This document shows positions 1 through 63,820 of a stretch of 64,000 nucleotides of DNA, piece by piece; position 1 is the stretch's first letter, and every line of letters starts with the position of its first letter. The stretch is from Saprospiraceae bacterium (GTDB lineage Bacteria > Bacteroidota > Bacteroidia > Chitinophagales > Saprospiraceae). The translations under genes were made by a program, and so were the position numbers. The stretch is from assembly GCA_016787525.1 (NCBI GenBank), contig JAEUUP010000010.1, positions 25,619 to 89,618 on the forward strand. Reading direction: 5' to 3'. Below the pieces are notes generated by a model that was given only the letters and a program-made list of their open reading frames with translations, did no database searches and was not told the origin of the DNA.

Positions 1-343
1 CGGCATCCTCCAAAACACAATCACATTCAGATTTATCCCCCTCAGTACGACAAGAAATGCTGAGAACTTTCGATGACGAGGGTGCAATTTTTTCAATGTG
101 ATAAGTGCTATCAAGGGAGACAACCGTTTCCAACGCTTTGCCCGTACTAATCAATTTCGCCTCAGCAAATTGGTTTTGCCCGATTTGACTTTCCCATGTT
201 TTCACCACATCTTCGGGGGTGTTGGGCAGCTGAATAGTCCGTGTAGAAGCGTTTGATGATGAAGCATTTGTATCACCTTGTTTGCATGCAACAGCGAAAA
301 AACATAAAAGTAGAATAGACGCAAAAGCAATAGAATTTTTCAT
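1..343 (-). CDS. Lipoprotein, partial (3' end outside window)
   Basis: The reverse strand is open from an ATG at 343 to the window edge, about 114 codons. It starts MKNSIAFASILLLCFFAVAC, a classic lipoprotein signal peptide with a lipobox ending in Cys20, then a Ser/Asn-rich linker (GDTNASSSNAST). The mature part contains TPEDVVKTWESQIGQNQFAEAK, which resembles the helical start of NTF2-like or DUF4878-type lipoproteins; that match is inference. A dispersed 10-mer at 38-47 encodes Thr-Glu-Gly in CRTEGDK. The stop codon is not in the window, so length and C-terminal domain are unknown. It is transcribed divergently from the gene at 582, with 238 bases between them. Confidence 0.8.
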   Translation of the reverse strand, partial: MKNSIAFASILLLCFFAVACKQGDTNASSSNASTRTIQLPNTPEDVVKTWESQIGQNQFAEAKLISTGKALETVVSLDSTYHIEKIAPSSSKVLSISCRTEGDKSECDCVLEDA

Positions 344-581
344 TCAAATAAGGCTTTGTGTAAAAAAACAGGAGTGGAAATGAATGAGGTTTCAGTTAAG
401 CACGCAAAAGTACGACTTTTTTGGCTTTTTGCTAAGTTTTAGCAAAACTTTGACATAGCATTTTAGTTAAAAATTAGTTTTTCTCAAAATTTGGTTTGAA
501 ATTTGAATATCTAAAAAGTTTAAATAATTGAAAACTACTCAGTTTGGTTCACCAACCAAACACTTAAATCGCGGTAAATCA

Positions 582-1583
582 ATGAAATACCCACAACTTT
601 TACTGGCATCATTTCTTATTTTGCTTTCTGCAAACCTATTTGCACAACGCTTTGGCTACCCCTCAGTACACGAACGCCAACTGATTGGCACAAAATGGCG
701 GTACGCTTACACCTTGCACATCGAGTCGAACACGACCGTTCACCAAGCCGACAAGGACTATCAATACTTCCTGTTTTTCAAATATGACTTCACTTTTGAA
801 CAATCTTTGCATGGCAAATTGTCAAAAGGTAATTGGAGTTTAAGCGGAGGTACATTGTTTTATCCGTTCCGAAATATTAAGAAATTTGAAATTGCGGCAA
901 TAAATAATAAAGCATTAGTGCTTGAATTTCAACAACCTAACTCAAGTGGCACTTATCAATACCATTTCGTAGCGGTTGATAGTAAGGATGCGCCTTTCGT
1001 CCGACCTGCCAATGAGTTGCCCGAAGTCATTGTCGAAGCAGAACCCAAACAACCCAAACGGCGTTCGTGGTGGGCTATCTTAAAAGGCGGCGACGATGAG
1101 CAGAAAAAAGCTGAAACCAAGCGCAAAGAGCAGACTTATATCAGCGTCGAACTCATCGGTGGCGGCTACTACGGCGGCATTGACCCTGTCATCAAAGATT
1201 TTACACGCATCACGACTGATGGGCGTTTGATTCACGAGTTTCAGACAGTGAACAACCCTTTGCGTGTGGTCAAAAAGAACATCAGCCGCAAAGAATTGGA
1301 AGATTTTGCGCAATACATCATGGACAATAAGTTCTTCCAAATGCAGCGTATGTACGATTGCAACAGTCCTGCATGTGAAAAACGCAAAGTGATGAAGCCA
1401 ACGCCGATTCCGCTGCGCTTGACGGTGACTTATGGTGACAAAAAACGCATGGTGACGATTGCCATTTGGGGCGATGATAACTACAAAATGAAATATGTGG
1501 ACTATCCGCCAGCTCTCGACAATATCATCGAGGCGATTCAACGCATGACGCACCGTATAGATGACAAATTGACGCGGTCTTGA
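582..1583 (+). CDS. Secreted protein with lipocalin-like and DUF6438-like halves
   Basis: 333 residues. The longer reading frame begins at a TTG at 528; I prefer the ATG at 582 because it puts a clean signal peptide (MKYPQLLLASFLILLSANLFAQ) at the N-terminus. The first half (residues about 30-145) has the pattern IGTKWRYAYTLHI...GNWSLSGGTLFYPF, like lipocalin-type stress-response or META-type beta barrels. A basic linker (KQPKRRSWWAILKGGDDEQKKAETKRK) follows. The second half has VELIGGGYYGGIDPVIKDFTRITTDGRL and an IIEAIQRM end, like the DUF6438 family. Both family matches rest on pattern only. A dispersed 10-mer at 659 encodes YPSV. It is probably periplasmic; its role is unknown. It ends just before a terminator hairpin. 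Confidence 0.75.
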   Translation: MKYPQLLLASFLILLSANLFAQRFGYPSVHERQLIGTKWRYAYTLHIESNTTVHQADKDYQYFLFFKYDFTFEQSLHGKLSKGNWSLSGGTLFYPFRNIKKFEIAAINNKALVLEFQQPNSSGTYQYHFVAVDSKDAPFVRPANELPEVIVEAEPKQPKRRSWWAILKGGDDEQKKAETKRKEQTYISVELIGGGYYGGIDPVIKDFTRITTDGRLIHEFQTVNNPLRVVKKNISRKELEDFAQYIMDNKFFQMQRMYDCNSPACEKRKVMKPTPIPLRLTVTYGDKKRMVTIAIWGDDNYKMKYVDYPPALDNIIEAIQRMTHRIDDKLTRS

Positions 1584-1605
1584 CAAGCGTTTATAAAAAA
1601 CTATC

Positions 1606-1647
1606 AAAAGGCGTTGAGATACTGAGGGGGTGTCTCAACGCCTTTTT
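1606..1647 (+). terminator. Rho-independent terminator with the dispersed 10-mer as its loop
   Basis: The arms AAAAGGCGTTGAGA (1606-1619) and TCTCAACGCCTTTT (1633-1646) pair over 14 bases and run into a T tract. The 13-base loop (1620-1632) is the 11-base word TACTGAGGGGG plus TG. It serves the gene ending at 1583. Confidence 0.85.
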
Positions 1648-1812
1648 CATAGGTCAGAATAAACTTGTTCAGTTCATTATAAAAATCTAAATTTGCCAAT
1701 CGTATCTCTTAAACCATTTTTATGATATTTTTTTTTGAGAAAATTTAAACAAATTTGGTGTTCTGAGTATTTACCAATTTAAAAATTAAACAATTCTACT
1801 TTGACCAAATAA

Positions 1813-2040
1813 ATGACAACGATAGTGAACAATTTGAAAGATTTATTGGAACGTTCTGCCTTTGGCGTTTGCTCTTACTTAGGCGAAAAAATGAATATAG
1901 CCTCATCACGTGTTCGGCTCTATTTCATCTATATTTCTTTTCTGACGGTCGGTTCGCCTGTCATTTTTTACTTCATTCTGGCTTTTTGGGTCAATGTTCG
2001 GCGTTATATCAAGCGTCACCGCGATGCTTTGTTTGGTTAG
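1813..2040 (+). CDS. Small PspC-domain membrane protein
   Basis: 75 residues. The segment GVCSYLGEKMNIASSRVRLYFIYISFLTVGSPVIFYFILAFWVNVRR matches the PspC fold: a short G-C-S/G-YLGE-K helix turn, then one long transmembrane stretch (about residues 35-62) with a GSP turn, ended by basic residues. PspC proteins sit in the inner membrane and are linked to envelope stress. Bacteroidota often encode single-domain versions like this one, whose function is not established. The gene sits 27 bases before the hydrolase at 2068, and the promoter for that gene overlaps its last codons. Confidence 0.8.
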   Translation: MTTIVNNLKDLLERSAFGVCSYLGEKMNIASSRVRLYFIYISFLTVGSPVIFYFILAFWVNVRRYIKRHRDALFG

Positions 2041-2063
2041 CTGCTTGTATAGCCGTAACTTTG
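2032..2063 (+). promoter_or_regulatory. Bacteroidota-type promoter, nearly leaderless, for the 2068 gene
   Basis: TTTG at 2032-2035, a 20-base spacer and TAACTTTG at 2056-2063 match the Bacteroidota consensus TTTG-N19-TAnnTTTG. The ATG is at 2068, only five bases after the -7 box, so the transcript should start at or next to the start codon. Confidence 0.7.
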
Positions 2064-2067
2064 CCCC

Positions 2068-3018
2068 ATGAATACCACATCACCCGCAGCAACGAGAATC
2101 GAGTATCTCGAATCCAATCATTTTGATGGCAAAACAGAACATGCGCCCAAAATAAAGCCTTGGCAATTGCGCGTAGCACAATTTCTGTTTAGCACTTTTG
2201 GAAGCGTATCCCCTCAGTATATGGCGCGATTGGCTTATAAAATCTTTGCCACACCACGCCACCGCGCCAAACACCGTCAACCCGATGACTTGATTCGAGC
2301 TGCAAAAGTGATTGATTTGCCATTCGACGGGCATATTGTCAAGCTGTATGAATGGGAGAAAGAGCCTGATGCACCCATCATTTTGCTCGCGCATGGTTGG
2401 GAATCGCGCGGTACAGCTTTGCGTATGTTCGTCAAGCCTTTGCTCAATAAGGGTTTCAAAGTCGTTGCTTTCGATGCTTTGGCGCATGGTGATTCGGATG
2501 GCAGCACCAATAATCTGCTGACCAATGCACGCACAATCGCAGCTATTCATGCCCATTATGGCAATATTTATGGCGCGATTGGTCATTCTTTCGGCTGTTC
2601 AAGTTTGGTTTATGCACAGCAATTTGTGAATAATGCGATTGATTTTCAACGACTTGTATTTTTGGCTGTGCCGCACCGTACCAAACGTATCATGGACGGC
2701 TTTCTGGCATACATGAATGCGCCAAATGCTGTCAAAAAAGCTTTTTTTCACTACATCGAAAGCCTGACAAAACAGCCTATTGAGACTTCAGATACAGCCT
2801 TGGCATACCCTTCAGTAAAAGTCGGTCAATTGCTCTTAATCCATGACCAAGACGATGATGTGACTTCTATTGATGCCGCCGAGCGTGTTGTTGAGCATTG
2901 GGACAATGCTCTTTTGTTGGTTACAAAAGGCTATGGACATTTTAGAATTGCCAAAAATCCTGATGTTATTCGCAGGATTGTTGATTTTTTGGAAATGACA
3001 AAGAATGAAGACTTTTAA
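2068..3018 (+). CDS. Alpha/beta-hydrolase fold protein
   Basis: 316 residues with no signal peptide, so probably cytoplasmic. The fold signature is clear: LLAHGWESRG (oxyanion region, about 107-115), a GHSFGCSS nucleophile elbow with Ser174, an acid candidate in LLIHDQDDDVT, and the catalytic His in KGYGHFRIAKN near the C-terminus. This layout fits serine esterases or lipases of the Abhydrolase_6 type; the substrate cannot be told. An N-terminal extension of about 75 residues with a hydrophobic patch may cover the active site or touch the membrane. A dispersed 10-mer at 2210 encodes SPQY, and a one-base variant lies near 2809 (YPSV). A strong hairpin follows. Confidence 0.88.
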   Translation: MNTTSPAATRIEYLESNHFDGKTEHAPKIKPWQLRVAQFLFSTFGSVSPQYMARLAYKIFATPRHRAKHRQPDDLIRAAKVIDLPFDGHIVKLYEWEKEPDAPIILLAHGWESRGTALRMFVKPLLNKGFKVVAFDALAHGDSDGSTNNLLTNARTIAAIHAHYGNIYGAIGHSFGCSSLVYAQQFVNNAIDFQRLVFLAVPHRTKRIMDGFLAYMNAPNAVKKAFFHYIESLTKQPIETSDTALAYPSVKVGQLLLIHDQDDDVTSIDAAERVVEHWDNALLLVTKGYGHFRIAKNPDVIRRIVDFLEMTKNEDF

Positions 3019-3100: not shown

Positions 3101-4024
3101 ATGCTTGATAGATTAAAAATAGCCGCTCGTTTTCTCAAATTCTATTGGCGAGCAAAAACAAAATACCGCGTTCATTCGCCCTTCGTTTTCCAATTTGTGG
3201 AAGCGGTTTTGGAGGATGACCGTACATTCTATGTTTTTCGTGAAGCAGAAATACTGAGGGGGGAGTTGTTGAATTCTAACGATTCGATTGAGGTAGAGGA
3301 TTTTGGCGCAGGCTCGCATGTGAGTGGCTTGAAAAAGGTGCGCAAAGTGCGCGAAATAGCGGCTTCGGCGTTGTCACCTGCATTTCAATGTGCTTGGTTG
3401 TTTCGGTTAGTTCAGTTCTCTAAGCCTTTGTCTATCATTGAGTTAGGGACATCTTTGGGCGTTTCGACGCTGTATCTTACTGAGGGGTCGCCTCGACAAG
3501 CTCAAGTATTGACTTTGGAAGGTTCTAAAACAATCGCAGATTTGGCACGCCGCAATTTCGATTGGTATTACGATACTTTTTTGAAAATAGGTTTAAAAAG
3601 AAACAATCCCGACATTTTGGATTTTTCAAGTTATGAGAAAAATATAAAAACGGATTTTGAAAAAAATAAAATTCAAATCCTTGTTGGCACATTTGACCAA
3701 ACCTTGCAAAAAGCCCTGAATCAAGTCAAAAAACTGGATTTTGCCTTCATTGATGGCAACCACCGCCGTGAGCCAACGCTCGCTTATTTCAATCAATGTC
3801 TCGCATATGCTCACGAAGGAACGGTTTTGGTTTTTGACGACATTCACTGGTCGGAAGATATGGAATCGGCTTGGGCAACCATCCAATCGCACCCCTCAGT
3901 ACGTTTGACGATTGACTTATTTTGGTGTGGCATCGTGTTTTTTAGGCATGAAAACAAAGAAAAAGAGCATTTTTCGCTGATAAAAGCAGAATGGAAGCCT
4001 TTTTCGTGGGGCTTTTGGGCATAA
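3101..4024 (+). CDS. SAM-dependent class I methyltransferase
   Basis: 307 residues from the ATG at 3101. An in-frame TTG at 3059 lies inside the preceding terminator hairpin and was rejected. The SAM-binding motif I is IIELGTSLGVSTLYLT. A strand-4 acidic motif follows in KLDFAFIDGNHRREPTL, and VLVFDDIHWSEDM supplies further acidic residues. This order resembles O-methyltransferases of the MTF24 type (D-G-N-H after strand 4). The N-terminus (MLDRLKIAARFLKFYWRAKTKYRVHSPFVF) is typical of a Bacteroidota-specific group whose substrate is not known to me. Three dispersed 10-mers fall inside it (3252 LRG, 3478 TEG, 3892 PSV). Confidence 0.82.
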   Translation: MLDRLKIAARFLKFYWRAKTKYRVHSPFVFQFVEAVLEDDRTFYVFREAEILRGELLNSNDSIEVEDFGAGSHVSGLKKVRKVREIAASALSPAFQCAWLFRLVQFSKPLSIIELGTSLGVSTLYLTEGSPRQAQVLTLEGSKTIADLARRNFDWYYDTFLKIGLKRNNPDILDFSSYEKNIKTDFEKNKIQILVGTFDQTLQKALNQVKKLDFAFIDGNHRREPTLAYFNQCLAYAHEGTVLVFDDIHWSEDMESAWATIQSHPSVRLTIDLFWCGIVFFRHENKEKEHFSLIKAEWKPFSWGFWA

Positions 4025-4123: not shown

Positions 4124-4840
4124 ATGAAAAGAAATGTACTCTTCCTTCTGACTCTTGCTTATTTGGGCGTGTTTTTTAACGGTTGTATGCCCCCTCGAAC
4201 AGCTATTTTGACACCTCAAATTCCCGAAAAATATTTAGACAAAGATGGTTTTGCGATGCAAAAAAGCGACAGTATTGATGTTACTTTTGGCTACCTATTC
4301 AGTACACAAGACTACTTGGTTTTTGAGGTTTCTGTTAAAAACAACAGCACCGATTCGGCATACGTTGATGCGAGCCAATTCACATACTATGCAGCTTCTG
4401 CAAAAGACACAAGCCACCAGATTCGCTACTTCAAAGCCCACAGTATTGACCAAATCACGGAAAAACTCAAGGAACGCGTGCGTGAAAGAAATGTAAAAAC
4501 GGCAATATTGGTTTTGGCAACTGTAGCAGCCGTAGCAGCGGTTGAGTCTAAGAGTCAAAAAAATAGGTCTCCACGTTATCGCGATTATTCGTGGTCAATC
4601 CGAACAGGCGTAGATTTATCGTTCAACTATTTCGATGCTGTTATGTTTAGTCAGTTGACGAAAAAGGAAGCCAGAAAGGGTTTGGAAAAAAGTGTGATGT
4701 TGCCTAAGAAAATTGGAGCAGGCGAAACACATATCGGAGCAGTCTATTTTCCTCGTTTTGATGCGGCTAAGGAGCTCACTTTTAACTTTTATACTGAGGG
4801 GAGGGATTTTGTCACAATATTCAAACAAAAACTTCAGTAG
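4124..4840 (+). CDS. Lipoprotein of unknown function
   Basis: 238 residues. The signal peptide MKRNVLFLLTLAYLGVFFNG is followed by Cys21, the lipidation site. The mature protein has a beta-sandwich-like segment (YLVFEVSVKNNSTDSAYVDASQFTYYAA), often seen in lipoproteins that describe non-covalent surface domains. A hydrophobic Ala/Val stretch (TAILVLATVAAVAAV, about residues 126-140) may be a second membrane segment. No family is recognised. A dispersed 10-mer at 4792 encodes YTEG in the last 20 residues. It is followed by a promoter for proline dehydrogenase, so it is probably monocistronic. Confidence 0.75.
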   Translation: MKRNVLFLLTLAYLGVFFNGCMPPRTAILTPQIPEKYLDKDGFAMQKSDSIDVTFGYLFSTQDYLVFEVSVKNNSTDSAYVDASQFTYYAASAKDTSHQIRYFKAHSIDQITEKLKERVRERNVKTAILVLATVAAVAAVESKSQKNRSPRYRDYSWSIRTGVDLSFNYFDAVMFSQLTKKEARKGLEKSVMLPKKIGAGETHIGAVYFPRFDAAKELTFNFYTEGRDFVTIFKQKLQ

Positions 4841-6225: not shown

Positions 6226-6365
6226 CAAGCAATAACTAATTAATCAATGAATGACAAATAACTGACTGTCATTGGTTTAGAATTAAAAAAAATAAAAATA
6301 AAAGGTAAAAACAAAAAATATACTGAGGGGGCATGATTTTTGGTGGAAAGAAGAACTGAACAAAT

Positions 6366-6576: not shown

Positions 6577-7011
6577 ATGAAAAAAACTATATTTTCTATT
6601 CTCGTTTTTTTGCCACTCTTTTCGTTTGCACAACAAAATTCCCCCGTCACCAAAACGATTGACTCTCGCTTGTACGATGCCTATGGCAAAACGTATGTTG
6701 ACGCAGTGGCACAGACTGACGCATTCTTGATAAAGCGGTGGACGTATTACCTCGACCATGCTTTTTATGTGACAGACGAACTCGTGAGCAAAGATGGTAA
6801 ACCTTTGGACTACCCCTCAGTATCTGTACCCGATTTGGCGCATATTAATATTTTGATTTTGGAAGGTGAGCAAAATTTGAAACGCGATTATTACGTTGAA
6901 ACGATTTATCAAATCAAAGGGACGAATAAGTTTTTGGTTTATCACTCGGGGCAGAATTTTATTGAGAAATTAAATGAGCATCTAAATGAAGAAAAAAAGG
7001 CTGATAAGTAA
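6577..7011 (+). CDS. Small secreted protein, unknown function
   Basis: 144 residues from the ATG at 6577, which gives the signal peptide MKKTIFSILVFLPLFSFAQ. An ATG at 6550 would add nine residues before it and is less likely. The mature protein contains the segment YDAYGKTYVDAVAQTDAFLIKRWTYYLDHAFYVTDEL and a short beta-rich C-terminal half (YYVETIYQIKGTNKFLVYHSGQNF). No family is recognised. A dispersed 10-mer at 6813 encodes YPSV. It lies 122 bases before the giant adhesin gene on the same strand; a link to that system is possible but not shown. Confidence 0.7.
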   Translation: MKKTIFSILVFLPLFSFAQQNSPVTKTIDSRLYDAYGKTYVDAVAQTDAFLIKRWTYYLDHAFYVTDELVSKDGKPLDYPSVSVPDLAHINILILEGEQNLKRDYYVETIYQIKGTNKFLVYHSGQNFIEKLNEHLNEEKKADK

Positions 7012-7133: not shown

Positions 7134-10100
7134 ATGAAAAATATAGCTACAACGTTTATCTGGGCCTTTAGCCTATTTTTTGTCTCAAAAACCGTAATAG
7201 GGCAAACCACTATCACAATGCGCAATGGGTCAGTTAGCACAGGGACTTGTGGTGCAGTTTTCTATGATTCAGGTGGTAATGCGGGGGCGTATAGCAATAA
7301 TCAAGATTTGACCTTCACTATTTGTTCAGACGACCCAATGAATAATCATATTGCTTTGGGTTTCAATGATATAGATATTGCTGCTGGCGACGAACTCTGT
7401 TTTTTTGACGGTTCTGACACCAATGCCCCTTCATTAGGTTGTGCAAGCGATTTTGCCAATAACCCAAACTTAGTTGTTGAGACAAGTGCAAGAAATGGTA
7501 CTGGGTGTATGACAATTCGTTTTAGGTCAAATTCCTCTGGCACAGGACGTGGCTGGTTCGCAAATGTTGTGTGTATCCCTTCTTGTCAGACGTTTACGAC
7601 CAAAATTGTGTCTTCTCGTCCTGCCATTGTACCCGTTGATACAGGTTGGATTGATGCTTGTCCGAATACAACTTCTATCAATTTCAAAGCATCAGGCTCT
7701 TATCCATTGAACAATGTTGCCTACCGCCAATCCGATAGCTTGTCAAAATTTGAATGGAATTTTGACGACGGTACACCTGTGGCTTATGGACCCGATGTGA
7801 ATCATATTTTCACAAAATCAGGTGGTTATGTCGTCAAATTGACGGTGATTGACACACATGGTTGTAAAAATATCAATTATATCAAACAGCGTGTCCGTAT
7901 TGCACCTCGCCCAACGTTTAATTTGGGCTCAATCGTCAGTCAAATTTGTGCAGGACAAGAAGTTAGACTGAGGGGTACGACAGCGCAGATTGACCCTAAC
8001 TATAACGTCTCAACTAAAACAAATGAAGATAGTTTTAGGATTGGTCAAGTGCGTTCGGAGAAGTTATTTATCCCCGATAATCAACGCGACCAATATAAAT
8101 CGAGTGTTTATTTTACCGATTTCAACCCTGGGCAAACTCTACAAAATGCCGCCGACCTGAAGCGAATATTTGTGAACATGGAACACTCTTGGGCGCGTGA
8201 TTTGGAGATTAAAATTGTATGCCCGAGCCAACAGTCGGCTATTTTGCACAAATATGCAGGCCAAACGGGTAATGAAATCCGCATTGGCTTACCGCGTTCT
8301 AATCGTTATACGCCGGGTAGTGATGGTACTGGGACACAACAAAATGACCCCGCCTTCAATCCAGCAGGAACAGGTTTGGAGTATGGTTGGACGAGTTTAG
8401 CAACACGCACTTGGCGTTCTTTCACCAGTGGTGCTATTAGCTTAGCTCCTGGTGATTATGCGCCCGAAGACCCTTTTACACGTTTGGTCGGTTGTCCGTT
8501 GAATGGTGAGTGGTCGCTCTATATCAAAGACCAGTGGACGGGGGACAATGGTTGGATTTTTTATTGGGGTATTGATTTTGAGAAACGACTTTATCCTAAA
8601 ATTGAGACATTTAAGCCTCAAATTGTGAGCCACACATGGTTGATGAACCCGACTGTTACCTCTTACAATATGGACTCCATCGTTGCACGACCACGCAATG
8701 CGGGTATTGCAAGTTATACTTATCAAGTAAAAGATAATTTCAACTGTGTTTGGGATACAGCGGTGAATGTCAATATTTTGCCACCAACCAATGCACAATG
8801 TGCTGTCTGCGATTTGAATTTTCCAGAATTAAAAGATACTTCGTTTTGTGTTGCAGAACCTTTAGGCACTGTTTTGAATAAAACTTCGCTCAATCGGGTG
8901 AACAATTCCGTTACTTTTGATGCTTTTCCAAATGTGCAAATTGACGGAAATACCGCAACTCTATTCAATCCTCATTCTTCTACTATTTTAGTGCGCAATA
9001 TCTTTATGCAAACTCTTACAGACCCTCTGACTCAGTTGGACTCTGTGTGTATTGATGTCAATTCGAGTGTTGCAGATGATTATGTGGTGCAACTGAAAGC
9101 ACCGTCAGGACAAACTATTTTGATGAAACCCGATCGAGTAGGGGGGGTACAAAAAAATATTCGCGCACTGTGTTTCTCACCAACGGCAACAAGAGCCATC
9201 GAATCTGCAGCTTCGCCTTTGACAGGCGATTATCAACCCGCAGGAGGTGTCACAACATGGAACACACTGAGGGGGGCAACGGTGAACGGTAATTGGCAGC
9301 TTCTATCCTCGGTCATTCGAGGAGGTCATACAGATACTTTGACGCATTGGTCTATCACTTTCAAAAGCGGCAATGCCTTGAAATACAGTTGGGCACCAGC
9401 GACAGGTCTGTCTTGCTCAAACTGTGCCACTCCAACCGCTCGACCTACAAATACCACTCAATACATTGTTACAGTTGTGGATAGTTTGAATTGTACGCAT
9501 CGCGATACTGTTCGCGTAACGGTCATTGATAGTTTGGCAGCCCCCAGTTTATCAGTAGGCAATCTCAACTTCTCATGGATTCAATTTGTCTGGGGAGCTG
9601 TGAATGGTGCAACAGGGTATGAAGTGAGTGTGGATAGTGGTAGAACTTGGGTGACACCCAATGGTAATTTACAACACACTGTAACAGGCTTGCGTACTAT
9701 GCAAACAGTGACATTGATGGTACGTGCTTTGGGTGGCACTTGCGGTGCAAGAATTGCACGATTGTCAGAAACTTCAATGGACTGTATTGCAACCATTGGG
9801 CGAGGTGCCAATCGTCGTCTTTTAGTGGACTCAATCCTTTGCTATGGTGGAACAAGCCCTTTTGTTAATTTTGCTTTTGCGAATGGTGTTCAGCCTTTGA
9901 CCTATAAAATTGATACGTTCAGTCAATTACTTGACCCCGTTTTTAGAAATAAAATAAAAGCAGGAAGGCATACAGCTATTGTGATTGATGGCGAAGGATG
10001 TCAAGATACGCTTATCTTTTACTTGGGTCAACCCGACCCCCTCAGTATCCAGAAGACTGTGGACTCTGTCAAATGTAATAATACAGCCACTGGTAAAATA

Positions 10101-13100
10101 AGTCTTGTCGCCTCGGGAGGTGTCGGACGATATGTTTATACCCTCAATTTGAGTCCATTTGGGCGAAATCCAGGTGTTTTTGACAGTTTAGTTGTTGGGA
10201 AATACATTATTGAGGTCGAAGACAGCAATCGCTGTCGTTTCCGCGATTCCGCTACCATCTACCAACCTTCGGCTCTGACTATGAATTTAGTTAAACAAGA
10301 TGTCCGCTGTTTTGGTAATACGAATGGTTCTATTCGCGCTTTAGCTGCTGGCGGTATTTCTCCTTACAGTTACAGTTGGAGCAATGGCAATACAACCAGT
10401 GTGTTGACTAATTTAACAGCTGGCAAATATGTTGTTACCTTAACTGATAAAAATGGCTGTCGAAAAACAGACTCTTCAACCGTCGTCTCTCCCGCTAAGA
10501 TAGTTATAACTCCCGTCCAAGATTCTGTCAAATGCTTCGGAGATGCCACAGGGCGAGCGCGCGCACGAGTGACAGGTGGTTTGACACCATATTCTTATAA
10601 TTGGAACAATACGCAATTTGATAGTATTGCATCGGGTCTCAAAGCTGGATTGCAGCGTGTGACTGTAACAGATGGCATTGGGTGTTCCGACACTGCCAGC
10701 ATTACTGTACTGCAACCTGCCCAAATCCGCTTTGATTCGTTGGTCAGCATGCCTGCTACTTGTAGTAATTTAGCAACAGGGTCAGCACGTGTAGTTGTCA
10801 GTGGGGGTGTGCAGCCTTATCGCTATACTTGGCTTCCAAATGGTGCAACAACGCCTTCGATTTCCAATCTTCCTGCCGCACGCTACGGCATTACAGTCCG
10901 TGATAACAACAATTGTTTCAAAACTGACTCTGTTACTGTTAGTTCTAATCCAGCATTGGTCATTCAAGGCATGGATTTCTCTCAACTCAAGTGCAATGGT
11001 GATGCCACAGGTTCTATTGTGGTAAAAGCGACAGGAGGCACGGGTGTTTACACTTATCGCTGGAGTACATCTCCTATGCAAACCGCAGATACAGCGAAAA
11101 ACTTGACTGCGGGTCGCTATTCTGTGACAGTTACTGACCAAAACAATTGTACAGTGACAAAAGATACGACTTTATCAGAGCCACCGCGACTCAATGCGAC
11201 AATAACACAGTTCAAAAATGTAAAATGTAAGGGCGATGCCAACGGAACAGCGACCCCCTCAGTAACAGGCGGTACGCCATTCCAAAGTAACTTCCGTTAT
11301 ATCTATAAATGGAGTGACCCAAGAGGGCAAGATGCTGTTACAGCAGTTAATTTGGGTGTTGGCACTTATACTGTAAGTGTTACAGATGCCAATGGTTGTG
11401 TGGATACGGCGAATATAACCATTACTGAACCCGCAACAGCCGTACAAGCCTTTCCTGTACAAACCAAGCTATCTTGTTACAATGGTAGCACCGGTGAAGC
11501 CCAAGTCTCTGCAACTGGTGGCTCTGGTAACTATTCTTATCGTTGGAGCAATTTGCAAAATACACAAACAGTCACAGGTCTGTCACGCCAATTCTATTCT
11601 GTCACAGTAACAGATGCTTCTGGCTGCCAAGCTATTGACTCCATCGCTATCCAAAGCCACGATTCTATCAAGGCACAAATCGCTGTTGTACAACCCAGAT
11701 GTTACAATACGTCAACAGGCTCTTTGTCCATTTCTTCTGTCGAAGGTGGTGCAGGTAATGGTAATGTCAATAATTATTTTTATCGTTGGAATACCAATCC
11801 TGCACAGACAAATTATCAAGCGGTCAATATTCCTGGCGGTCGTACCTACTCCGTCACGGTCACAGATACTGAGGGGTGTACCAATACTTTCTTCAAATTC
11901 ATCGGACAACCCGGCCCTATTCTACTTTCAGCGTTTTCAAAACCTGTCAGCTGTTTTGGCGGTTCAGACGGTCAAGCATTGATAACAGCCGTTGGCTCAA
12001 ATAACTCATTTACTTACAAATGGAATGATACCGCAGGACAAACAACCCAACAAGCCACAAAGTTGATTGCAGGACGATATGCTGTAACTATCACAGACTC
12101 AACGGGTTGCAAAAGAGATACTGTTGTGGATGTGTTCCAACCATCGCGCTTGAAAATTGATTCAAAAACCATCACTGACAATAAATGCGTAGGTGATACG
12201 ACAGGACGTATTGATTTGACCGTATCGGGCGGTATTCCTTTTTACAATATCTCTTGGTCGAGTGGCGATACTTCTGCTTCAGCTAAAAAACTCCGTTCGG
12301 GTACATATATCGTCACTATTTCTGATGCCAACGGCTGTAAATTGTTTGATACTATTGTTGTAAAATCGCCACCTGTGCTGGATGCAGACATCTCTGCTAA
12401 CCCTGTCAAATGTTTTGGAGACCAAAACGGTAGTATCATTGTTGATGCTTTTGGTGGCACTCAACCTTATTATTACAGTTTAAATGGTAAAACGTATAAC
12501 GGTATCAGCCAAATTGTGGGCGTAAAAGCGGGTAGTTACGATGTTTATGTCAAAGATGCCAACGGCTGTATTTGGTTTGATAATGTCACAATCGCATCAC
12601 CACCGAAATTTATCGTCGAAGCGTCACCTGATATTACCATCAATTTGGGAGATAAAACCCAACTTTTTGCAAACCCTCTCAACAATCGTGGAACAGTTAC
12701 TTTAACGTGGAAACAACCGTATGACAGCACTTTAAGTTGCTTGAAATGTCCAAACCCTATTGCAAAACCGATGTCCACTATTTTGTATATTGTCAATGGT
12801 GTGGATTCGGCGGGTTGTCGAGCATCGGACAGTGTGAAAATTACGGTGTCAAAACCACGCAATGTTCTCGTGCCAACAGGGTTTACACCGAATGAAGACC
12901 TTATCAACGATAAACTCATTGTGCGCGGTCGCACAGGGACAATCATCAAGGTTTTCAGAATTTATGACCGATGGGGCGAGATGCTTTATGAAGCCACTAA
13001 TTTCCAAATCAATGACGAAAAATCGGGTTGGGATGGCACATTCCGAGGGCAATACATGAATTCTGGTCAGTATGTTTGGTATGTCGAAGCCCAGTACATA

Positions 13101-14639: not shown

Positions 14640-14664
14640 ACGATACCCCCTCAGTATTTTTTGA

Positions 14665-29790: not shown

Positions 29791-29792
29791 GG

Positions 29793-55928: not shown

Positions 55929-56750
55929 ATGAATCATACTCGAATATCGCCCATTTTGCGCATAAATACTGAGGGGGGCAAAATCGTTGACGACAAACTG
56001 ACCGTCGAAGAGCCGCTTGAAATTGTGGTTGGCTTTGGTACAGCACAAAAACGACAGCGACAAACCATTGCGGTCACAATGCGTACACCCGACCATGATT
56101 TTGACTTAGCTCTTGGGTTCTTATTTACTGAGGGGGTGATTGCGCGAAAAAAAGATGTGGCGAATATTCGATTTTTAAGCGAAAATAAGGTTTTAGTAGA
56201 TTTAAACGAGCATATTTCACTCGATATTAATCGTTTGAACCGACATTTCTACACAACATCGAGTTGTGGTGTATGTGGTAAAAGTTCGTTAGAAGCTGTT
56301 GCAACGACGAGCTGCTTTTTCTTAAACCCTCAAAAACCATTGATTCGTCAAGATTTCTTTTTCGATTTACCTACAAAATTGAGACTGGCGCAGTCTGTTT
56401 TTGACGAAACGGGTGGCACACATGCCTCGGCCTTGTTCGATACTGAGGGGGTACTTTTGACCGTTTTTGAAGACGTTGGACGACACAATGCTCTTGACAA
56501 GCTCGTCGGCTGGGCGTTGCAACAGGAACTTTTGCCTTTAGACAATCACATTTTGTTGGTCAGTGGGCGCACGAGTTTTGAGTTGATTCAGAAAGCTGTC
56601 ATGGCAGGTATTCCGATTGTGGCGGCAGTGGGTGCGCCATCGAGTTTGGCGGTTGAGTTGGCAGAAGAAAATAATGTGACATTGGTGGGCTTTTTGAGAA
56701 AGAATGGTTTTAATGTTTATAGCGGCTCACAAAGAATTGATTTTAAATGA
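55929..56750 (+). CDS. fdhD: Formate dehydrogenase accessory sulfurtransferase FdhD
   Basis: 273 residues from the ATG at 55929; a TTG two codons earlier is less likely. FdhD carries sulfur from a cysteine desulfurase to the molybdenum cofactor of formate dehydrogenase-type enzymes. Marks: EEPLEIVVGFG, DFDLALGFLFTEGVI, the sulfur-carrying loop TTSSCGVCGKSSLEA (Cys113 and Cys116), GTHASALFD-like segment, VFEDVGRHNALDKLVGWAL and LVSGRTSFELIQKA. Its target, the oxidoreductase at 56777, is next to it. Three 10-mers in 0.8 kb (55967, 56127, 56441), all read as TEG; the middle one is the conserved FTEG of the family. Confidence 0.95.
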   Translation: MNHTRISPILRINTEGGKIVDDKLTVEEPLEIVVGFGTAQKRQRQTIAVTMRTPDHDFDLALGFLFTEGVIARKKDVANIRFLSENKVLVDLNEHISLDINRLNRHFYTTSSCGVCGKSSLEAVATTSCFFLNPQKPLIRQDFFFDLPTKLRLAQSVFDETGGTHASALFDTEGVLLTVFEDVGRHNALDKLVGWALQQELLPLDNHILLVSGRTSFELIQKAVMAGIPIVAAVGAPSSLAVELAEENNVTLVGFLRKNGFNVYSGSQRIDFK

Positions 56751-56776: not shown

Positions 56777-59083
56777 ATGGAAAAAGAAACAATAAACGAC
56801 AGTACAAACGCCCTTACGCCTGAAGGTTTTACGGGCTTGAAATTGAAAAAGCCTGCTGCAAAAGCGGTGGGTATGCCTGCCATCACATCTGCGATGAAAC
56901 ACGCTTTTAAGTGGATGGATGCAGGGGACGCTGTCAAAGTCATGTTCAAAGTCAATCAAAAAGGTGGTTTTGACTGCCCAAGTTGTGCGTGGGCTGACCC
57001 TGACGGCGAGCGTTCGCATTTGGGTGAATATTGCGAAAATGGCATGAAAGCCATTGCTGAAGAGGCGACAAATCGGCATTTGACGGCTGAATTTTTCAAA
57101 AAACATTCGATTCAAGAGCTGTCAAGTTGGTCGGATTATCAAATTGGCAAAAGTGGGCGATTGACCGAGCCAATGATACTGAGGGGTAGTCATTACGAAC
57201 CCATCAGTTGGAGCGATGCATTTGCAACCATCGCGTCGCATTTGACGGCTTTACGAAACCCGAATGAAGCGATTTTTTACACATCTGGACGAACGAGTAA
57301 CGAAGCGGCGTTTTTATATCAACTCTTTATACGACAATTTGGGACGAATAATATGCCCGATTGTTCCAATATGTGCCACGAGTCAAGTGGCAAAGGCTTG
57401 ATGAATACAGTTGGCATCGGCAAAGGTTCGGTGACATTGGAGGATTTTTATAAAGCCGATTTGGTGATGGTCATTGGGCAGAACCCTGGGACAAATCACC
57501 CACGGATGTTGTCGGCATTGGAAAAATGTAAGGAAAACGGCGGTAAAATTATTGCAGTCAACCCTTTGCCCGAGGCGGGTTTGTTGCATTATATCAATCC
57601 TCAGAGCGTTGGTAAGATGATCACAGGCGGCATTCCGTTGGCAGATTTGTTTTTGCAAGTCAAAATCAATGGCGATATCGCATTGCTCAAAGCAATCATG
57701 TTTTTGCTATTGGAAAAAGAAAAAAACATAGGAGGCGTTTTTGATTGGGATTTTATCAAAAGTAAAACAGAGGGTTTCGATGCGTTTTTAGAAGATTTGA
57801 AACAAGCTGATTTCCAACAACTTGTGCGATTAAGTGGTGTTCCTGAAACCCAAATTCTACAAGCCGCAGATATGATTTGCGCTCGAAAAAATATGATTAT
57901 TTGTTGGGCAATGGGTCTGACACAACATAAAAACGCTGTGGGCAATGTTCAAGAAATCGTAAATCTGCTTTTACTGAGGGGTTCGATTGGTAGGGAAGGA
58001 GCAGGTACTTGCCCTGTGCGTGGTCACTCCAATGTACAAGGCGACCGAACGATGGGTATTTGGGAAGCTCCCAAAGAGGCTTTTTTGGATAGTTTGAAAA
58101 AGGTATTTGATTTCGAACCACCTCGTCAGCATGGTTATGACACAGTTGCGGCGATTCAAGCGATGCACAATCGAAAAGCCAGTGTGTTTTTTGCTTTGGG
58201 TGGCAATTTTCTTTCGGCTACGCCTGACACAGAGTTCACAGCAGAAGCATTACGTCGGTGTGATTTGACAGTGCATGTTTCGACCAAACTCAACCGCAGC
58301 CATTTGGTACATGGTAAAACAGTTTTGATTTTACCCTGTTTGGGACGCACGGATATTGACCGACAAGCCAGTGGTGAGCAGTTTGTCAGTTGCGAAAACT
58401 CGATGGGTGTGGTGCATAGTTCGCGGGGCGTTTTAGAGCCATGTAGCCCTTACTTAAAAAGCGAAGTAGCGATTATTTGTGAACTGGCACAAGCCGTTTT
58501 AGGTCAAAAATCGCGTGTAAAATGGGCTGAATTGGTCAAAAATTACGATTTAATTCGCGATTTGATTGAAAAAACGATTGAGGGATTCAACGACTACAAT
58601 AAACGAATACGACAACCCGAAGGCTTCTATTTGCCCAATGGTTCACGTGTTCAAGATTTTAAAACGGTAACAGGAAAAGCGAATTTTACTATCAACAAAC
58701 CAGCCGAATGGTCGCTCAAAAAAGGAGAGTATATGATGATGACGATTCGTAGCCACGACCAATTCAATACGACGATTTATGGACTCGACGACCGTTATCG
58801 CGGTATTTTCAACGAGCGTAGAGTGATTTTGATGAATGAAAAAGACATGACTACTGAGGGGGTCAAAATGGGCGATGTGGTGGATTTGGTAGGCGAATAT
58901 AACGGGGTGACACGCGAAGCGAAACGATTTATCGTCGTGCCTTTTGATATTCCTCAAGGCGATGTCGCTACGTATTTTCCAGAAGCCAATACTTTGATTC
59001 CGATTGATTCTTTTGCAGATGTGAGTCATACACCGACTTCAAAATCGGTTGTGATTACTTTGCGACGGAGTATGAGTCAGTAG
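56777..59083 (+). CDS. FdhF/YdeP family molybdopterin oxidoreductase
   Basis: 768 residues. Pattern of the TIGR01701/YdeP group: KAVGMPAITSAMKH near the start, an Fe-S type Cys set (Cys67, Cys70, Cys86: CPSCAWADPDGERSHLGEYC), SGRTSNEAAFLYQLFIRQFGTNNMPDCSNMCHESSG, GQNPGTNHPRML, LLLRGSIGREGAGTCPVRGHSNVQGDRTMG and a C-terminal cofactor-binding domain (YMMMTIRSHDQFNTTIYGLDDRYRG). E. coli YdeP is linked to acid resistance; the substrate is unknown, and it may not be formate. It has no twin-arginine signal, so it is cytoplasmic. It is 26 bases after fdhD, one operon. Three 10-mers: 57177 and 57972 (LRG) and 58852 (TEG). Confidence 0.9.
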   Translation: MEKETINDSTNALTPEGFTGLKLKKPAAKAVGMPAITSAMKHAFKWMDAGDAVKVMFKVNQKGGFDCPSCAWADPDGERSHLGEYCENGMKAIAEEATNRHLTAEFFKKHSIQELSSWSDYQIGKSGRLTEPMILRGSHYEPISWSDAFATIASHLTALRNPNEAIFYTSGRTSNEAAFLYQLFIRQFGTNNMPDCSNMCHESSGKGLMNTVGIGKGSVTLEDFYKADLVMVIGQNPGTNHPRMLSALEKCKENGGKIIAVNPLPEAGLLHYINPQSVGKMITGGIPLADLFLQVKINGDIALLKAIMFLLLEKEKNIGGVFDWDFIKSKTEGFDAFLEDLKQADFQQLVRLSGVPETQILQAADMICARKNMIICWAMGLTQHKNAVGNVQEIVNLLLLRGSIGREGAGTCPVRGHSNVQGDRTMGIWEAPKEAFLDSLKKVFDFEPPRQHGYDTVAAIQAMHNRKASVFFALGGNFLSATPDTEFTAEALRRCDLTVHVSTKLNRSHLVHGKTVLILPCLGRTDIDRQASGEQFVSCENSMGVVHSSRGVLEPCSPYLKSEVAIICELAQAVLGQKSRVKWAELVKNYDLIRDLIEKTIEGFNDYNKRIRQPEGFYLPNGSRVQDFKTVTGKANFTINKPAEWSLKKGEYMMMTIRSHDQFNTTIYGLDDRYRGIFNERRVILMNEKDMTTEGVKMGDVVDLVGEYNGVTREAKRFIVVPFDIPQGDVATYFPEANTLIPIDSFADVSHTPTSKSVVITLRRSMSQ

Positions 59084-59166: not shown

Positions 59167-60585
59167 CTAATTATCTTCTTCTTTATTCAAAATCTCATAA
59201 ATATCACGATTGATTTTTTGAATCAAATTATTCGCAACAACAGTTGACGTACTTTCTGCATAGATGCGAATGATAGGCTCTGTATTTGACTTACGCATGT
59301 GAATCCAGTTGCCATCATTAAACTCTAATTTCAGGCCATCAAGGCGGTTGCGTTTGCAACTTTTCATCAATTTGTATTTATCGTCTAACTCATTGATGAT
59401 GTCGTCCACATTCACATCTTTAGGCAAGTCCAATTTTTTCTTAGCAATTTCATATTCAGGAAAACGTTTTTTCAAGAATGACAAAGGTTTGCCAAATTGT
59501 GCCAACGATGTCAACATCAAGGCAACACCTACGAGGGCATCACGACCATAGTGCAATTCAGGATAGATGACACCGCCGTTGCCTTCACCGCCAATAACGG
59601 CGTTTATTTCTTTCATTTTTGTTACAACATTGACTTCGCCAACGGCAGCAGCTTCGTATTGACCGCCTCTTTTTTCGGTCACATCTCGCAAAGCTTTTGT
59701 TGAACTGAGGTTTGAAACAGTATTTTTTACCCCCTCAGTATGTTGCAGCACATAATCGGCAATAGCTACCAAAGTATATTCTTCACCGAACATTTCGCCA
59801 TCATCGCGGACAAAAGCCAAGCGATCAACATCTGGGTCAACAGAGATACCTAAATGTGCTTTTTTGTTAATAACTTCTCTGGCGAGGTCGTTCAGATGTT
59901 CTGGTAGTGGTTCGGGGTTATGGGCAAAATTACCATTCATCGTGCCATTGATGACAAAGACTGTGCAACCCATTTGTTCTAAAAGCGGAACTATCGAGAT
60001 AGCACCAGTTGAATTCACTGGGTCAACGACAACACGGAAGTTTTTTGATGCAACAAGGTCTCTATCAACTAATTTTAGGGCAAGAATTTTATCAATGTGT
60101 TTCTGGATATAGGAATTATCGCTTCGGTAAGTACCCAATTGTTCGACATCAGCATATTTAATGCCTCCTTTTTCAATCAGAGAAAGTACAGTTTGACCAT
60201 CTTCTGCTGAGATAAATTCGCCTTTCTCATTCAATAATTTGAGTGCATTCCACTCTTTTGGGTTGTGGCTTGCTGTCAAAATAATACCTGCATCTGCATT
60301 TTCAGCAGGTACGGCAATTTCCACTGTAGGGGTAGTTGAAAGACCTAAATCCACAACGTCAATACCCAACGCAATGAGGGTATTGACAACTAAACTGCTG
60401 ACAGTTGCACCAGACATACGAGCATCGCGTCCAATCACGATTTTTGCGCGTTTTTCTTTTTTGCGATTCAGAACCCATGTTCCAAAAGCTGCAGTTGATT
60501 CAACGATGTCTTGTGGCGTTAAATTCGTACCGTAGCTGCCTCCTATCGTTCCTCTGATTCCTGAAATTGATTTTATGAGTGCCAA
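59167..60585 (-). CDS. glmM: Phosphoglucosamine mutase
   Basis: 472 residues. It turns glucosamine-6-phosphate into glucosamine-1-phosphate for UDP-GlcNAc and cell-wall synthesis. Marks: SISGIRGTIGG at the start, the phosphoserine loop TASHNP (104-109, Ser106), the metal loop DPDVDRLAF (250-258), the sugar loop GEGNGGVIYP, and the phosphate-binding RKSNTEPIIRIYAES at the end. The start is a TTG at 60585; it yields MALIKSISG, in line with the usual start of Bacteroidota GlmM, and no ATG is near. A phosphomannomutase role cannot be ruled out. A 10-mer at 59731 encodes HTEGV. Confidence 0.9.
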   Translation of the reverse strand: MALIKSISGIRGTIGGSYGTNLTPQDIVESTAAFGTWVLNRKKEKRAKIVIGRDARMSGATVSSLVVNTLIALGIDVVDLGLSTTPTVEIAVPAENADAGIILTASHNPKEWNALKLLNEKGEFISAEDGQTVLSLIEKGGIKYADVEQLGTYRSDNSYIQKHIDKILALKLVDRDLVASKNFRVVVDPVNSTGAISIVPLLEQMGCTVFVINGTMNGNFAHNPEPLPEHLNDLAREVINKKAHLGISVDPDVDRLAFVRDDGEMFGEEYTLVAIADYVLQHTEGVKNTVSNLSSTKALRDVTEKRGGQYEAAAVGEVNVVTKMKEINAVIGGEGNGGVIYPELHYGRDALVGVALMLTSLAQFGKPLSFLKKRFPEYEIAKKKLDLPKDVNVDDIINELDDKYKLMKSCKRNRLDGLKLEFNDGNWIHMRKSNTEPIIRIYAESTSTVVANNLIQKINRDIYEILNKEEDN

Positions 60586-61562: not shown

Positions 61563-61579
61563 TTTTTACTGAGGGGGTG

Positions 61580-63320: not shown

Positions 63321-63360
63321 TTTTTATGTATTTTCGGCAAATATACTGAGGGGGTACGAC

Positions 63361-63400
63361 ATAAAAAAACGCTGAACGTTTTTAAGCAACATTCAGCGTT
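63361..63400 (-). terminator. Terminator of the Nfu gene
   Basis: AACGCTGAA (63368-63376) and TTCAGCGTT (63392-63400) pair. On the minus strand the stem ends in seven Ts. Confidence 0.8.
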
Positions 63401-63421
63401 AAAATACTGTTTTACAATATT

Positions 63422-63679
63422 TTAGGCGATACCATTTAAGGCAACGACATTCTGGATTTCGGGTAGTTTGGATTTAATGGCTTGCTCAATACCTGCTTTC
63501 ATGGTCATACGCGACATGGAACAGTTTTCACAATTGCCCAACCACCGCACTTGAACGGTCATTTCGTCGGTCACGTCCACCACTTCTACATTGCCACCAT
63601 CCACTTCTAAAAAGGGGCGAATTTCATTTAAAGCACCGTTGATACGGTCTATTAACTGGCTTTTATCTTCTAATATCAT
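63422..63679 (-). CDS. NifU C-terminal-domain (Nfu) iron-sulfur carrier
   Basis: 85 residues, the Nfu domain alone. INGALNEIRPFLEVDGGNVEVVDV and VRWLGNCENCSMSRMTMKAGIEQAIKSKLPEIQNVVAL, with Cys50-x2-Cys53, which holds a 4Fe-4S cluster between two subunits for transfer to target enzymes. Single-domain Nfu proteins are common in Bacteroidota and are not tied to nitrogen fixation. It has a -7 box upstream and a terminator downstream, so it is a one-gene unit. No 10-mer. Confidence 0.92.
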   Translation of the reverse strand: MILEDKSQLIDRINGALNEIRPFLEVDGGNVEVVDVTDEMTVQVRWLGNCENCSMSRMTMKAGIEQAIKSKLPEIQNVVALNGIA

Positions 63680-63710
63680 TTTGATAATTGTTATTCAGAC
63701 AAATTAAACA

Positions 63711-63718
63711 CAAAGATA
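63711..63718 (-). promoter_or_regulatory. -7 promoter box for the Nfu gene
   Basis: The reverse strand reads TATCTTTG (TAnnTTTG), 32 bases before the start codon. No clear -33 box. Confidence 0.5.
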
Positions 63719-63820
63719 GAGAAATAGTTGAGAAATCATGGCGCATTTCTCGGTAGCCGTTTATGTTTCTGCCATTTTTACCCCTCAGTAAAAAGAACCC
63801 AAAATGGTATAGTAAAGGCT

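What the first reader, a model, noticed from the sequence alone, without database searches (positions are those of the whole stretch)
37..63790. A genome-seeded 10-mer, TACTGAGGGG, about one copy per 930 bases
I counted 69 copies of the core CTGAGGGG on either strand, 65 as the full 10-mer; equal base frequencies would give about 0.12 of the 10-mer in 64 kb. Copies are spread over housekeeping, surface and intergenic DNA, with no strand bias (33 to 36). DNA uptake sequences of Neisseriaceae and Pasteurellaceae have this length, density, asymmetry and strand balance. Other options are a HIP1-like word kept by a methylase or repair system, or the site of a nucleoid or segregation protein. I know of no uptake sequence described for Bacteroidota.
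Basis: partly seen in the sequence, partly recalled or inferred. Interest (0 to 1): 0.93.

Follow-up and report, generated by a model that had tools for sequence, protein, structure and literature searches.

The report
Seven-thousand-copy DNA self-recognition word
A Bacteroidota bacterium carries the same ten-letter DNA word about 7,000 times, roughly once per thousand letters, set in flanking DNA whose composition keeps step with the turns of the double helix; the word likely serves as a badge by which cells would recognise and take up DNA of their own kind.

Summary
Among the genomes searched only this one is seeded. The other 149 family genomes, including the only other genus member held, have 0-14 copies each, and a paired-word scan of one genome per species for 84,980 species found nothing. 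Most copies checked arose by substitution inside existing genes. The flanks carry an AA/TT-versus-GC rhythm of about 10.5 bp locked to the word, from about 85 bp upstream to 165 bp downstream, in intergenic DNA and in every codon frame. Neighbouring words exclude each other. Word-rich phage contigs exist, and two groups of them show the same flanks. My Haemophilus-type USS sample has two strong AT tracts on one side; the neisserial DUS sample has no clear ones. The statistics match uptake sequences. The genome has ComEC, an adjacent quadruple-HHH protein and NamZ, counterparts of Riemerella transformation genes, but no type IV pilus ATPase over cut-off and no secretin. Best reading (0.55): an independently evolved self-uptake word read by a pilus-free importer. 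Main rival (0.27): a nucleoid protein's wrapping site.

The parts
38..47 (-). word copy
659..668 (-). word copy
1620..1629 (+). word copy
2210..2219 (-). word copy
3252..3261 (+). word copy
3478..3487 (+). word copy
3892..3901 (-). word copy
4792..4801 (+). word copy
6321..6330 (+). word copy
6813..6822 (-). word copy
10038..10047 (-). word copy
11255..11264 (-). word copy
11867..11876 (+). word copy
14647..14656 (-). word copy
15988..15997 (-). word copy
16417..16426 (-). word copy
16749..16758 (+). word copy
17625..17634 (+). word copy
20450..20459 (+). word copy
20612..20621 (+). word copy
21125..21134 (-). word copy
21939..21948 (+). word copy
25382..25391 (-). word copy
26539..26548 (-). 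word copy
27212..27221 (-). word copy
28575..28584 (+). word copy
29317..29326 (-). word copy
29722..29731 (-). word copy
30890..30899 (+). word copy
31126..31135 (-). word copy
32356..32365 (+). word copy
34374..34383 (-). word copy
35338..35347 (+). word copy
37019..37028 (-). word copy
38163..38172 (-). word copy
38312..38321 (-). word copy
39992..40001 (-). word copy
40230..40239 (-). word copy
40641..40650 (-). word copy
41316..41325 (-). word copy
43325..43334 (-). word copy
44121..44130 (-). word copy
44487..44496 (-). word copy
45155..45164 (+). word copy
45801..45810 (+). word copy
46606..46615 (+). word copy
46752..46761 (+). word copy
47155..47164 (+). word copy
47770..47779 (+). 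word copy
48117..48126 (-). word copy
50206..50215 (-). word copy
50739..50748 (-). word copy
51632..51641 (+). word copy
52439..52448 (+). word copy
53878..53887 (-). word copy
55967..55976 (+). word copy
56126..56135 (+). word copy
56441..56450 (+). word copy
57177..57186 (+). word copy
57972..57981 (+). word copy
58852..58861 (+). word copy
59731..59740 (-). word copy
61567..61576 (+). word copy
63344..63353 (+). word copy
63781..63790 (-). word copy

Best explanation
TACTGAGGGG(G/T) is a genome-seeded DNA word of 6,920 copies, carried in helically phased flanks, that likely works as a self-recognition uptake sequence: a predicted surface receptor would grip the strict core, the phased flanks would let the DNA bend around it, and the bent DNA would likely be drawn in by a pilus-free, ComEC-based importer. 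SHOWN: the count and strand balance; restriction to this species among the genomes searched; origin of most checked copies by substitution; near-absence of decayed cores; the roughly 10.5-bp flank rhythm at about -85 to +165; mutual exclusion of neighbours, somewhat stronger when the downstream sides face each other (p about 0.01-0.02); word-rich phage contigs; ComEC, an adjacent quadruple-HHH protein and NamZ in the genome; no pilus ATPase over cut-off and no secretin detected. INFERRED: that a protein binds the word, that the DNA bends, that the site acts during uptake, and that recombination of taken-up kin DNA (molecular drive) made and keeps the copies. The receptor is unknown. A candidate, for its position only, is the TonB-type outer-membrane barrel with a carboxypeptidase-regulatory domain encoded near comEC.
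For: Density (one per 1.05 kb) and strand balance as in DUS/USS. Near-words are about as scarce as in my USS and DUS samples: excess one-mismatch copies are about 11% of exact ones here, about 5% for USS and about 24% for DUS; positions 2-6 show no excess at all, 11 seen against 12 expected. Copies arose mainly by substitution: in 43 of 48 homologous alignments the relative has no gap within 4 codons of the word, in 64 of 76 none within 3 codons in a larger set. Intergenic density 1.70/kb against genic 0.84/kb, and convergent close pairs in hairpins, as I recall for uptake sequences. Phased AT tracts fall 5 and 16 bases after the core, the same offsets as in my USS sample. Seven viral contigs carry the word at about 0.6 per kb or more in the stretches read; phages lysogenising Pasteurellaceae accumulate USS (PMC6776037, passages). 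ComEC, an adjacent protein with four HHH_3 repeats and NamZ/DUF1343 are counterparts, by domain, of three of the eight genes essential for Riemerella anatipestifer transformation; four of those eight resemble no known machinery, and the authors suggest a new one (PMC8459023, passages). R. columbina prefers its own DNA (PMC7965970, section 16).
Against: No competence was tested, and no receptor is known. No type IV pilus or T2SS ATPase over cut-off and no secretin, although the USS/DUS species use pili (recalled; PMC7965970 introduction says so for Neisseria and Haemophilus). That Riemerella transforms without a pilus is my inference: the passages I saw name no pilus gene among its essential genes but do not say it lacks one, and one essential protein is predicted to lie in a fimbrium. 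ComEC, the HHH neighbour and NamZ also occur in kin that lack the word, so they do not explain it. The flank rhythm is much longer than the strong tracts of USS. Words avoid each other (3.6% within 100 bp, 17.7% expected), whereas 23% of H. influenzae USS10 lie within 100 bp of another (PMC7811141, passage); that looks like physical footprints on the chromosome. The two genus members lack a second, canonical HU, which fits a nucleoid reading. Words near alignment gaps are more frequent than background (12 of 76 against 150 of 2,980 windows), so a few copies may have come by insertion.
Confidence: 0.55

Rival explanations
1. The word is the nucleation site of a nucleoid protein (a sequence-specified, nucleosome-like wrap). 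A cytoplasmic protein would bind the core and wrap up to about 250 bp, spacing the wraps along the chromosome; selection on chromosome organisation would keep each site.
For: Phase-locked AA/TT against GC rhythm of about 10.5 bp over about 250 bp, present whatever the codon frame. Neighbour exclusion that depends on orientation: 46 convergent against 75 divergent pairs at 50-400 bp, p 0.011 (distance ranges chosen after seeing the counts). No known uptake pilus detected. Own genome and its genus mate have one HU-family gene, all 11 other kin searched have two or more.
Against: I recall no nucleoid protein with a strict 11-bp site at one per kb. The genus mate also lacks the second HU but has only 3 words. 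No histone-fold gene (PF00808) in own or 12 kin. Pair distances show no helical phasing. A role for the word in several unrelated phages is less direct.
Confidence: 0.27
2. A strong DNA-gyrase site: gyrase of this species would prefer the word and wrap the phased flanks on its GyrA C-terminal domains.
For: The E. coli gyrase motif is a core with two periodic wings of 10.75 bp (PMC6379681, passages), and gyrases of three species share GC-periodic flanks (PMC12324340, passages).
Against: That motif is symmetric, degenerate and 130 bp long; here the core is strict, asymmetric, and the rhythm runs to about +165. The open frames of the two PF00521 genes, 873 and 908 aa, lie within the range of kin. 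No reason for 6,920 strict sites in one species only.
Confidence: 0.05
3. A HIP1-like word or self tag kept by a methylase, repair or defence system: marked DNA would be spared, so the genome and its phages would accumulate the mark.
For: Seven viral contigs of more than one phage type are word-rich.
Against: The word is not palindromic; the requirement extends to helically phased flanks over about 250 bp, which a base-modification site would not need. No methylation data.
Confidence: 0.07
4. A Chi- or KOPS-like polar sequence for recombination or chromosome segregation.
For: G-rich, asymmetric core; short local same-strand runs occur (six in a row twice on C74).
Against: No strand bias genome-wide or over five stretches of 149-161 kb (80 of 156 to 89 of 167 on +); about 1,000-fold enrichment, far above what I recall for Chi.
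Confidence: 0.02

Closest known systems
Uptake signal sequence (USS) of Pasteurellaceae
   Same: About one per kb, both strands, asymmetric core, few near-words, present in temperate phages (PMC6776037, passages); AT tracts 5 and 16 bases after the core. Origin by substitution and hairpin pairs are recalled for USS.
   Different: Unrelated word; Bacteroidota; the rhythm runs about eight turns upstream and more than ten downstream, where my USS sample has two strong downstream tracts and only weak signal farther out (0.028-0.029 at 45-87 bp, noise 0.011); neighbours exclude each other; no pilus ATPase over cut-off or secretin found.
DNA uptake sequence (DUS) of Neisseriaceae
   Same: 10-mer, similar density and strand balance, scarce near-words.
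   Different: My DUS sample shows no clear flank rhythm: of six windows tested only one (upstream 24-66 bp) stood well above noise, in 70 copies. The ComP minor-pilin receptor (recalled) has no detected pilus to sit in here.
Natural transformation of Riemerella (Bacteroidota; PMC8459023, PMC7965970)
   Same: ComEC, helix-hairpin-helix protein and DUF1343/NamZ are present here; R. columbina prefers kin DNA; essential outer proteins unlike known machinery.
   Different: No strong word: k-mer counts there list only A-rich words (PMC7965970 Table 3). DUF5689 was not searched and the cognate outer-membrane protein was not identified here.
E. coli DNA-gyrase motif (PMC6379681)
   Same: Central core with helically periodic GC wings.
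   Different: Symmetric, degenerate, 130 bp; no genome seeding.
HIP1 of cyanobacteria (recalled)
   Same: Extremely over-represented short word.
   Different: Palindromic; no phased flanks known to me.

Membership tests
DNA uptake sequence (USS/DUS kind) | Short word massively over-represented genome-wide on both strands | tested here: met
   6,920 against 3 for the reversed word, 3,457/3,463
DNA uptake sequence (USS/DUS kind) | Word promotes uptake of DNA | not testable with these tools
   needs competition assays
DNA uptake sequence (USS/DUS kind) | Copies arise by point mutation, not insertion | tested here: met
   43 of 48 and 64 of 76 alignments without a gap in the relative at the word; gapped share (16%) above background (5%)
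DNA uptake sequence (USS/DUS kind) | Transformation machinery in the genome | tested here: inconclusive
   ComEC, HHH x4, NamZ present; DprA, ComF, ComM, DUF5689 not searched
DNA uptake sequence (USS/DUS kind) | Type IV pilus and secretin, as in the known USS/DUS species (recalled) | tested here: not met
   PF00437 only below cut-off, PF00263 none; genome 98% complete
DNA uptake sequence (USS/DUS kind) | Accumulates in temperate phages of the host | tested here: inconclusive
   7 of 10 viral contigs found by paired words hold about 0.6 per kb or more in the stretches read; the paired search favours word-rich stretches, and the host link rests on the word itself
Pasteurellaceae USS | Core AAGTGCGGT with two downstream AT tracts | tested here: not met
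   different core; tracts continue on both sides
Neisseriaceae DUS | GCCGTCTGAA or a dialect of it | tested here: not met
   unrelated sequence
Gyrase cleavage motif | Symmetric periodic wings within about 65 bp | tested here: not met
   asymmetric, to about +165
HIP1-like palindrome | Palindromic word | tested here: not met
   TACTGAGGGG is not palindromic
KOPS/Chi | Strand polarity along replichores | tested here: not met
   (draft assembly, stretches to 161 kb)
Histone-type chromatin | Histone-fold gene | tested here: not met
   PF00808 0 of 13 genomes; divergent bacterial histones could be missed

The most novel reading that the evidence does not exclude
A bacterium whose chromosome is indexed by a strict, asymmetric 11-bp word that positions about 7,000 nucleosome-like wraps of DNA: sequence-coded chromatin in a lineage that has lost its canonical HU.
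Probability: 0.22. Interest if true: 0.97.

Novelty: new variant of a known kind. Interest (0 to 1): 0.88.

Why it matters
Uptake sequences are known, as far as I recall and found in my searches, only from two families of Proteobacteria with type IV pili. A third, independent origin in Bacteroidota without a detected pilus would show that biased uptake can seed a genome by itself, and would give a handle on the unknown outer-membrane step of Bacteroidota transformation: the receptor must read this word. The helically phased flanks, and the way neighbouring words exclude each other, make the physical recognition step directly testable with short DNA fragments. If the nucleoid reading is right instead, it would be, to my knowledge, the first sequence-addressed chromatin in a bacterium.

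Tried and rejected
Contig-scale strand polarity suggested by the place list was a listing artefact. Insertion of a mobile 10-mer as the main source: rejected by homologous alignments without a gap at the word. Codon or protein origin of the flank rhythm: rejected; upstream amplitude is 0.060-0.068 in intergenic DNA and all five usable frames, downstream 0.019-0.053 and noisier in small classes. Generic property of common words: 150 control 7-mers reach at most 0.035 (one with n=32 reaches 0.059) against 0.064 upstream of the word; the downstream amplitude, 0.035, is no higher than the best A-rich controls, so the downstream claim rests on its range and fixed phase. Dialects in kin: none in the top-six word lists of 34 other genomes sampled at 13-81 kb each; the many-copy 10-mers there looked like simple or dispersed repeats (for example ACAACAACAA in G055, CGCCGCCGCC in G001, CGGATGACGC in G046). 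Assembly artefact: rejected, viral contigs from seven data sets carry the word. Prophage source: the Mu-like transposition gene was not detected in this genome (no positive control). Quantised spacing between words: none. I first thought the scarcity of near-words unusual; the USS/DUS yardstick showed it is not.

Dropped rows: the flank yardstick used only USS/DUS loci with at least 0.4 words per kb; the near-word yardstick used 34 of 49 USS and 7 of 11 DUS loci. Of ten viral contigs found by word pairs three (L287, L335, L336) hold 2-3 copies at 0.26-0.35 per kb, near chance or repeats. The flank test on 16 words of L330, L331, L333 and L336 was inconclusive in phase.
Full report
WHAT IS THERE. 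The window holds 65 exact copies of TACTGAGGGG (0.06 expected) and 69 of its 8-base core, 33 and 36 per strand. The whole genome (7,267,541 bases in 169 contigs, 98% complete) holds 6,920, split 3,457/3,463; the reversed word occurs 3 times. Enrichment over a third-order Markov model is about 1,000-fold. In the 1.616 Mb I read (22% of the genome) there are 1,576 copies, 0.98 per kb, and the largest gap between neighbours is 5.9 kb. In the first 854-kb sample the two longest gaps, both on contig C110, lie mostly inside one 4,341-aa gene that is likely a surface protein. Base 11 is G (485), T (290), A (34) or C (3) among 812 copies.

WHO HAS IT. Among 150 genomes of the family, only this one is seeded; the other 149 have 0-14 copies, like the reversed control (0-15). 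The genus holds two genomes and the second (G046) has 3 copies. A scan for two words at a fixed distance in one genome for each of 84,980 species returned nothing. This genome itself, apparently left out there, would give about 13 (3 such pairs in 1.616 Mb); sparser seeding would escape that scan. G046 is a Chitinophagales MAG (JAAFJT01, 100% match) whose next hits are Saprospiraceae MAGs at 62%; the family name is therefore inferred. Samples of 34 other genomes showed no other word near one per kb in their top-six lists, apart from simple or dispersed repeats.

HOW THE COPIES AROSE. In homologous protein alignments the word mostly replaces aligned codons: in 43 of 48 alignments the relative has no gap within four codons, and in a larger set 64 of 76 have none within three. 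The 12 gapped ones exceed background (150 of 2,980), which fits words settling in variable stretches, or a few insertions. Residue identity at word codons is 98 of 304 (32%) against 56% elsewhere. By my simple gene of 812 copies are genic, 196 intergenic and 2 at edges (0.84 against 1.70 per kb). All five usable reading frames are used and the frame with the in-frame stop is never used. Near-words are scarce: 108 one-mismatch copies against 27 expected, with no excess at positions 2-6. USS and DUS samples behave alike.

THE FLANKS. Across 804 aligned copies the smoothed A+T fraction swings between about 0.71 and 0.46 upstream with a period of 10.4-10.5 bp. 200 sets of random positions give at most 4% of that power. 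The rhythm is in AA/TT against GC, not TA, and stays above noise (z over 3, 42-bp windows, 782 copies) from about -85 to +166. Across the word its phase shifts by nearly half a turn, and beyond about +80 the phase drifts as if the period were nearer 11. It is present in intergenic DNA, sense and antisense and in every frame, with upstream amplitude 0.060-0.068 throughout and a noisier downstream part, so it is a property of the DNA and not of proteins. Control 7-mers stay below the upstream value, but the best A-rich ones equal the downstream value. On held-out copies, 83% score above the random median (AUC 0.75), so it does not come from a few copies. My USS sample (164 copies) shows two strong AT tracts downstream at +5 and +16 and, farther out (45-87 bp, both sides), only a weak signal of 0.028-0.029 against noise 0.011. 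My DUS sample (70 copies) shows nothing consistent; one of six windows, upstream 24-66 bp, rose well above noise. Words in the Mu-like phage contigs (19) and in two other phage contigs (28) show phases close to those of the host.

SPACING. Only 56 of 1,576 words (3.6%) lie within 100 bp of another, against 17.7% for random placement. At 50-200 bp there are 7 convergent, 20 divergent and 51 same-strand pairs, against 58, 58 and 115 expected; convergent against divergent p 0.019. At 50-400 bp convergent pairs (46) are rarer than divergent (75), p 0.011. Both ranges were chosen after seeing the counts. The longer downstream flank would thus match the stronger downstream exclusion. Of 17 pairs closer than 50 bp, 11 are convergent; those listed mostly form hairpins, as I recall for terminators made of USS/DUS pairs.

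PHAGES. Seven viral contigs carry the word at about 0.6 per kb or more in the stretches read; the paired search favours word-rich stretches. Two of them, L041 and L042, share the same word layout and are near copies of one Mu-like phage with portal, head, tail-sheath and transposition proteins; another is a 42-kb phage with terminase and helicase. Phages lysogenising Pasteurellaceae accumulate USS in the same way, while large, likely lytic ones do not (PMC6776037, passages). That these phages infect this species is inferred from the word itself.

MACHINERY. ComEC is present with an intact 722-aa frame, as in 27 of 30 genomes searched, own included. Three bases after it lies a 402-aa protein with four ComEA-type HHH_3 repeats (C7:136723-137931). 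A relative of it lies near comEC in 7 of 14 kin examined. Further along, on the same strand, are a 3D/MltA-type protein and an 848-aa TonB-type outer-membrane barrel with a carboxypeptidase-regulatory domain. Neither was found in those kin neighbourhoods, though that of the genus mate is only 3.8 kb long. NamZ/DUF1343 is present twice, and at least once in all 6 kin searched. In R. anatipestifer eight genes are essential for transformation: ComEC, DprA, ComF, RecA, an HHH protein, DUF1343, an outer-membrane protein with a carboxypeptidase-regulatory domain and a DUF5689 protein. The last four have no counterpart in known machines (PMC8459023, passages). So Bacteroidota have a route whose known essential parts are not pilus genes, and by domain part of it is here; that Riemerella has no pilus at all is my inference. 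No pilus or T2SS ATPase reached the cut-off (best 23.1 of 24.9 bits), and no secretin was found. DprA, ComF, ComM and DUF5689 were not searched.

WEIGHING. The word's statistics and its spread into phage contigs are those of uptake sequences, the only known things of this density and asymmetry that I can recall; that is the best reading at 0.55. The long flank rhythm and the footprint-like exclusion would fit either a curved landing tract for an importer that takes in a bent loop, or a nucleoid protein that wraps DNA. The second gains from the single HU gene in this genus (two draft genomes) and from the undetected pilus, and loses from the genus mate, which shares that loss but has no word excess. 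I hold it at 0.27. Gyrase, methylation or self-tag, and Chi/KOPS readings are less likely for the reasons given in their rows.

LITERATURE. Six text searches showed no uptake sequence reported for Bacteroidota in the listings I saw, which were capped. PMC7965970 (sections 14 and 16 read, passages elsewhere) reports self-preference in R. columbina, but only A-rich k-mers. The exact word occurs in 18 papers; the 5 listed are unrelated. PMC1939737, PMC7811141, PMC6379681, PMC12393610 and PMC12324340 were seen as passages only. Only openly licensed PMC papers were searched.

Noticed in passing
own genome C7:85483-85749: This genome and its genus mate each have one HU-family (PF00216) gene; all 11 other relatives searched have at least two, including a stronger canonical HU not found here (both are drafts, 97-98% complete).
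   Followed up: partly
own genome C7:132773-137931: comEC is followed on the same strand by a quadruple-HHH protein, a 3D/MltA-type protein and a TonB-type barrel; the last two were not found next to comEC in the kin examined.
   Followed up: partly
L020, L041 (IMGVR_UViG_3300037309_000133) and L042: Mu-like Bacteroidota phage rich in the word, with close convergent word pairs; its transposition gene was not detected in this genome.
   Followed up: yes
own genome, for example C74:65000-70000 and 80000-85000: Words cluster locally by strand: at 400-800 bp there are 296 same-strand pairs (307 expected) but 127 convergent and 117 divergent (154 expected each); probably a gene-level frame preference.
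   Followed up: no
G046 sample (L021-L023) and own L009: A dispersed repeat containing CGGATGACGC occurs 11 times in 59 kb of G046, and CAGTGAACGC 8 times in 20 kb of this genome; possibly an intergenic repeat family.
   Followed up: no
G082, L027: Palindrome ACCTAGGT is counted 8 times in 20 kb with both strands read (so about 4 sites), 23-fold over expectation; a possible HIP1-like word.
   Followed up: no
window:7134-13148: A 2004-aa open frame that carries three words in 6 kb, about half the average density, like the giant word-poor gene on C110.
   Followed up: no
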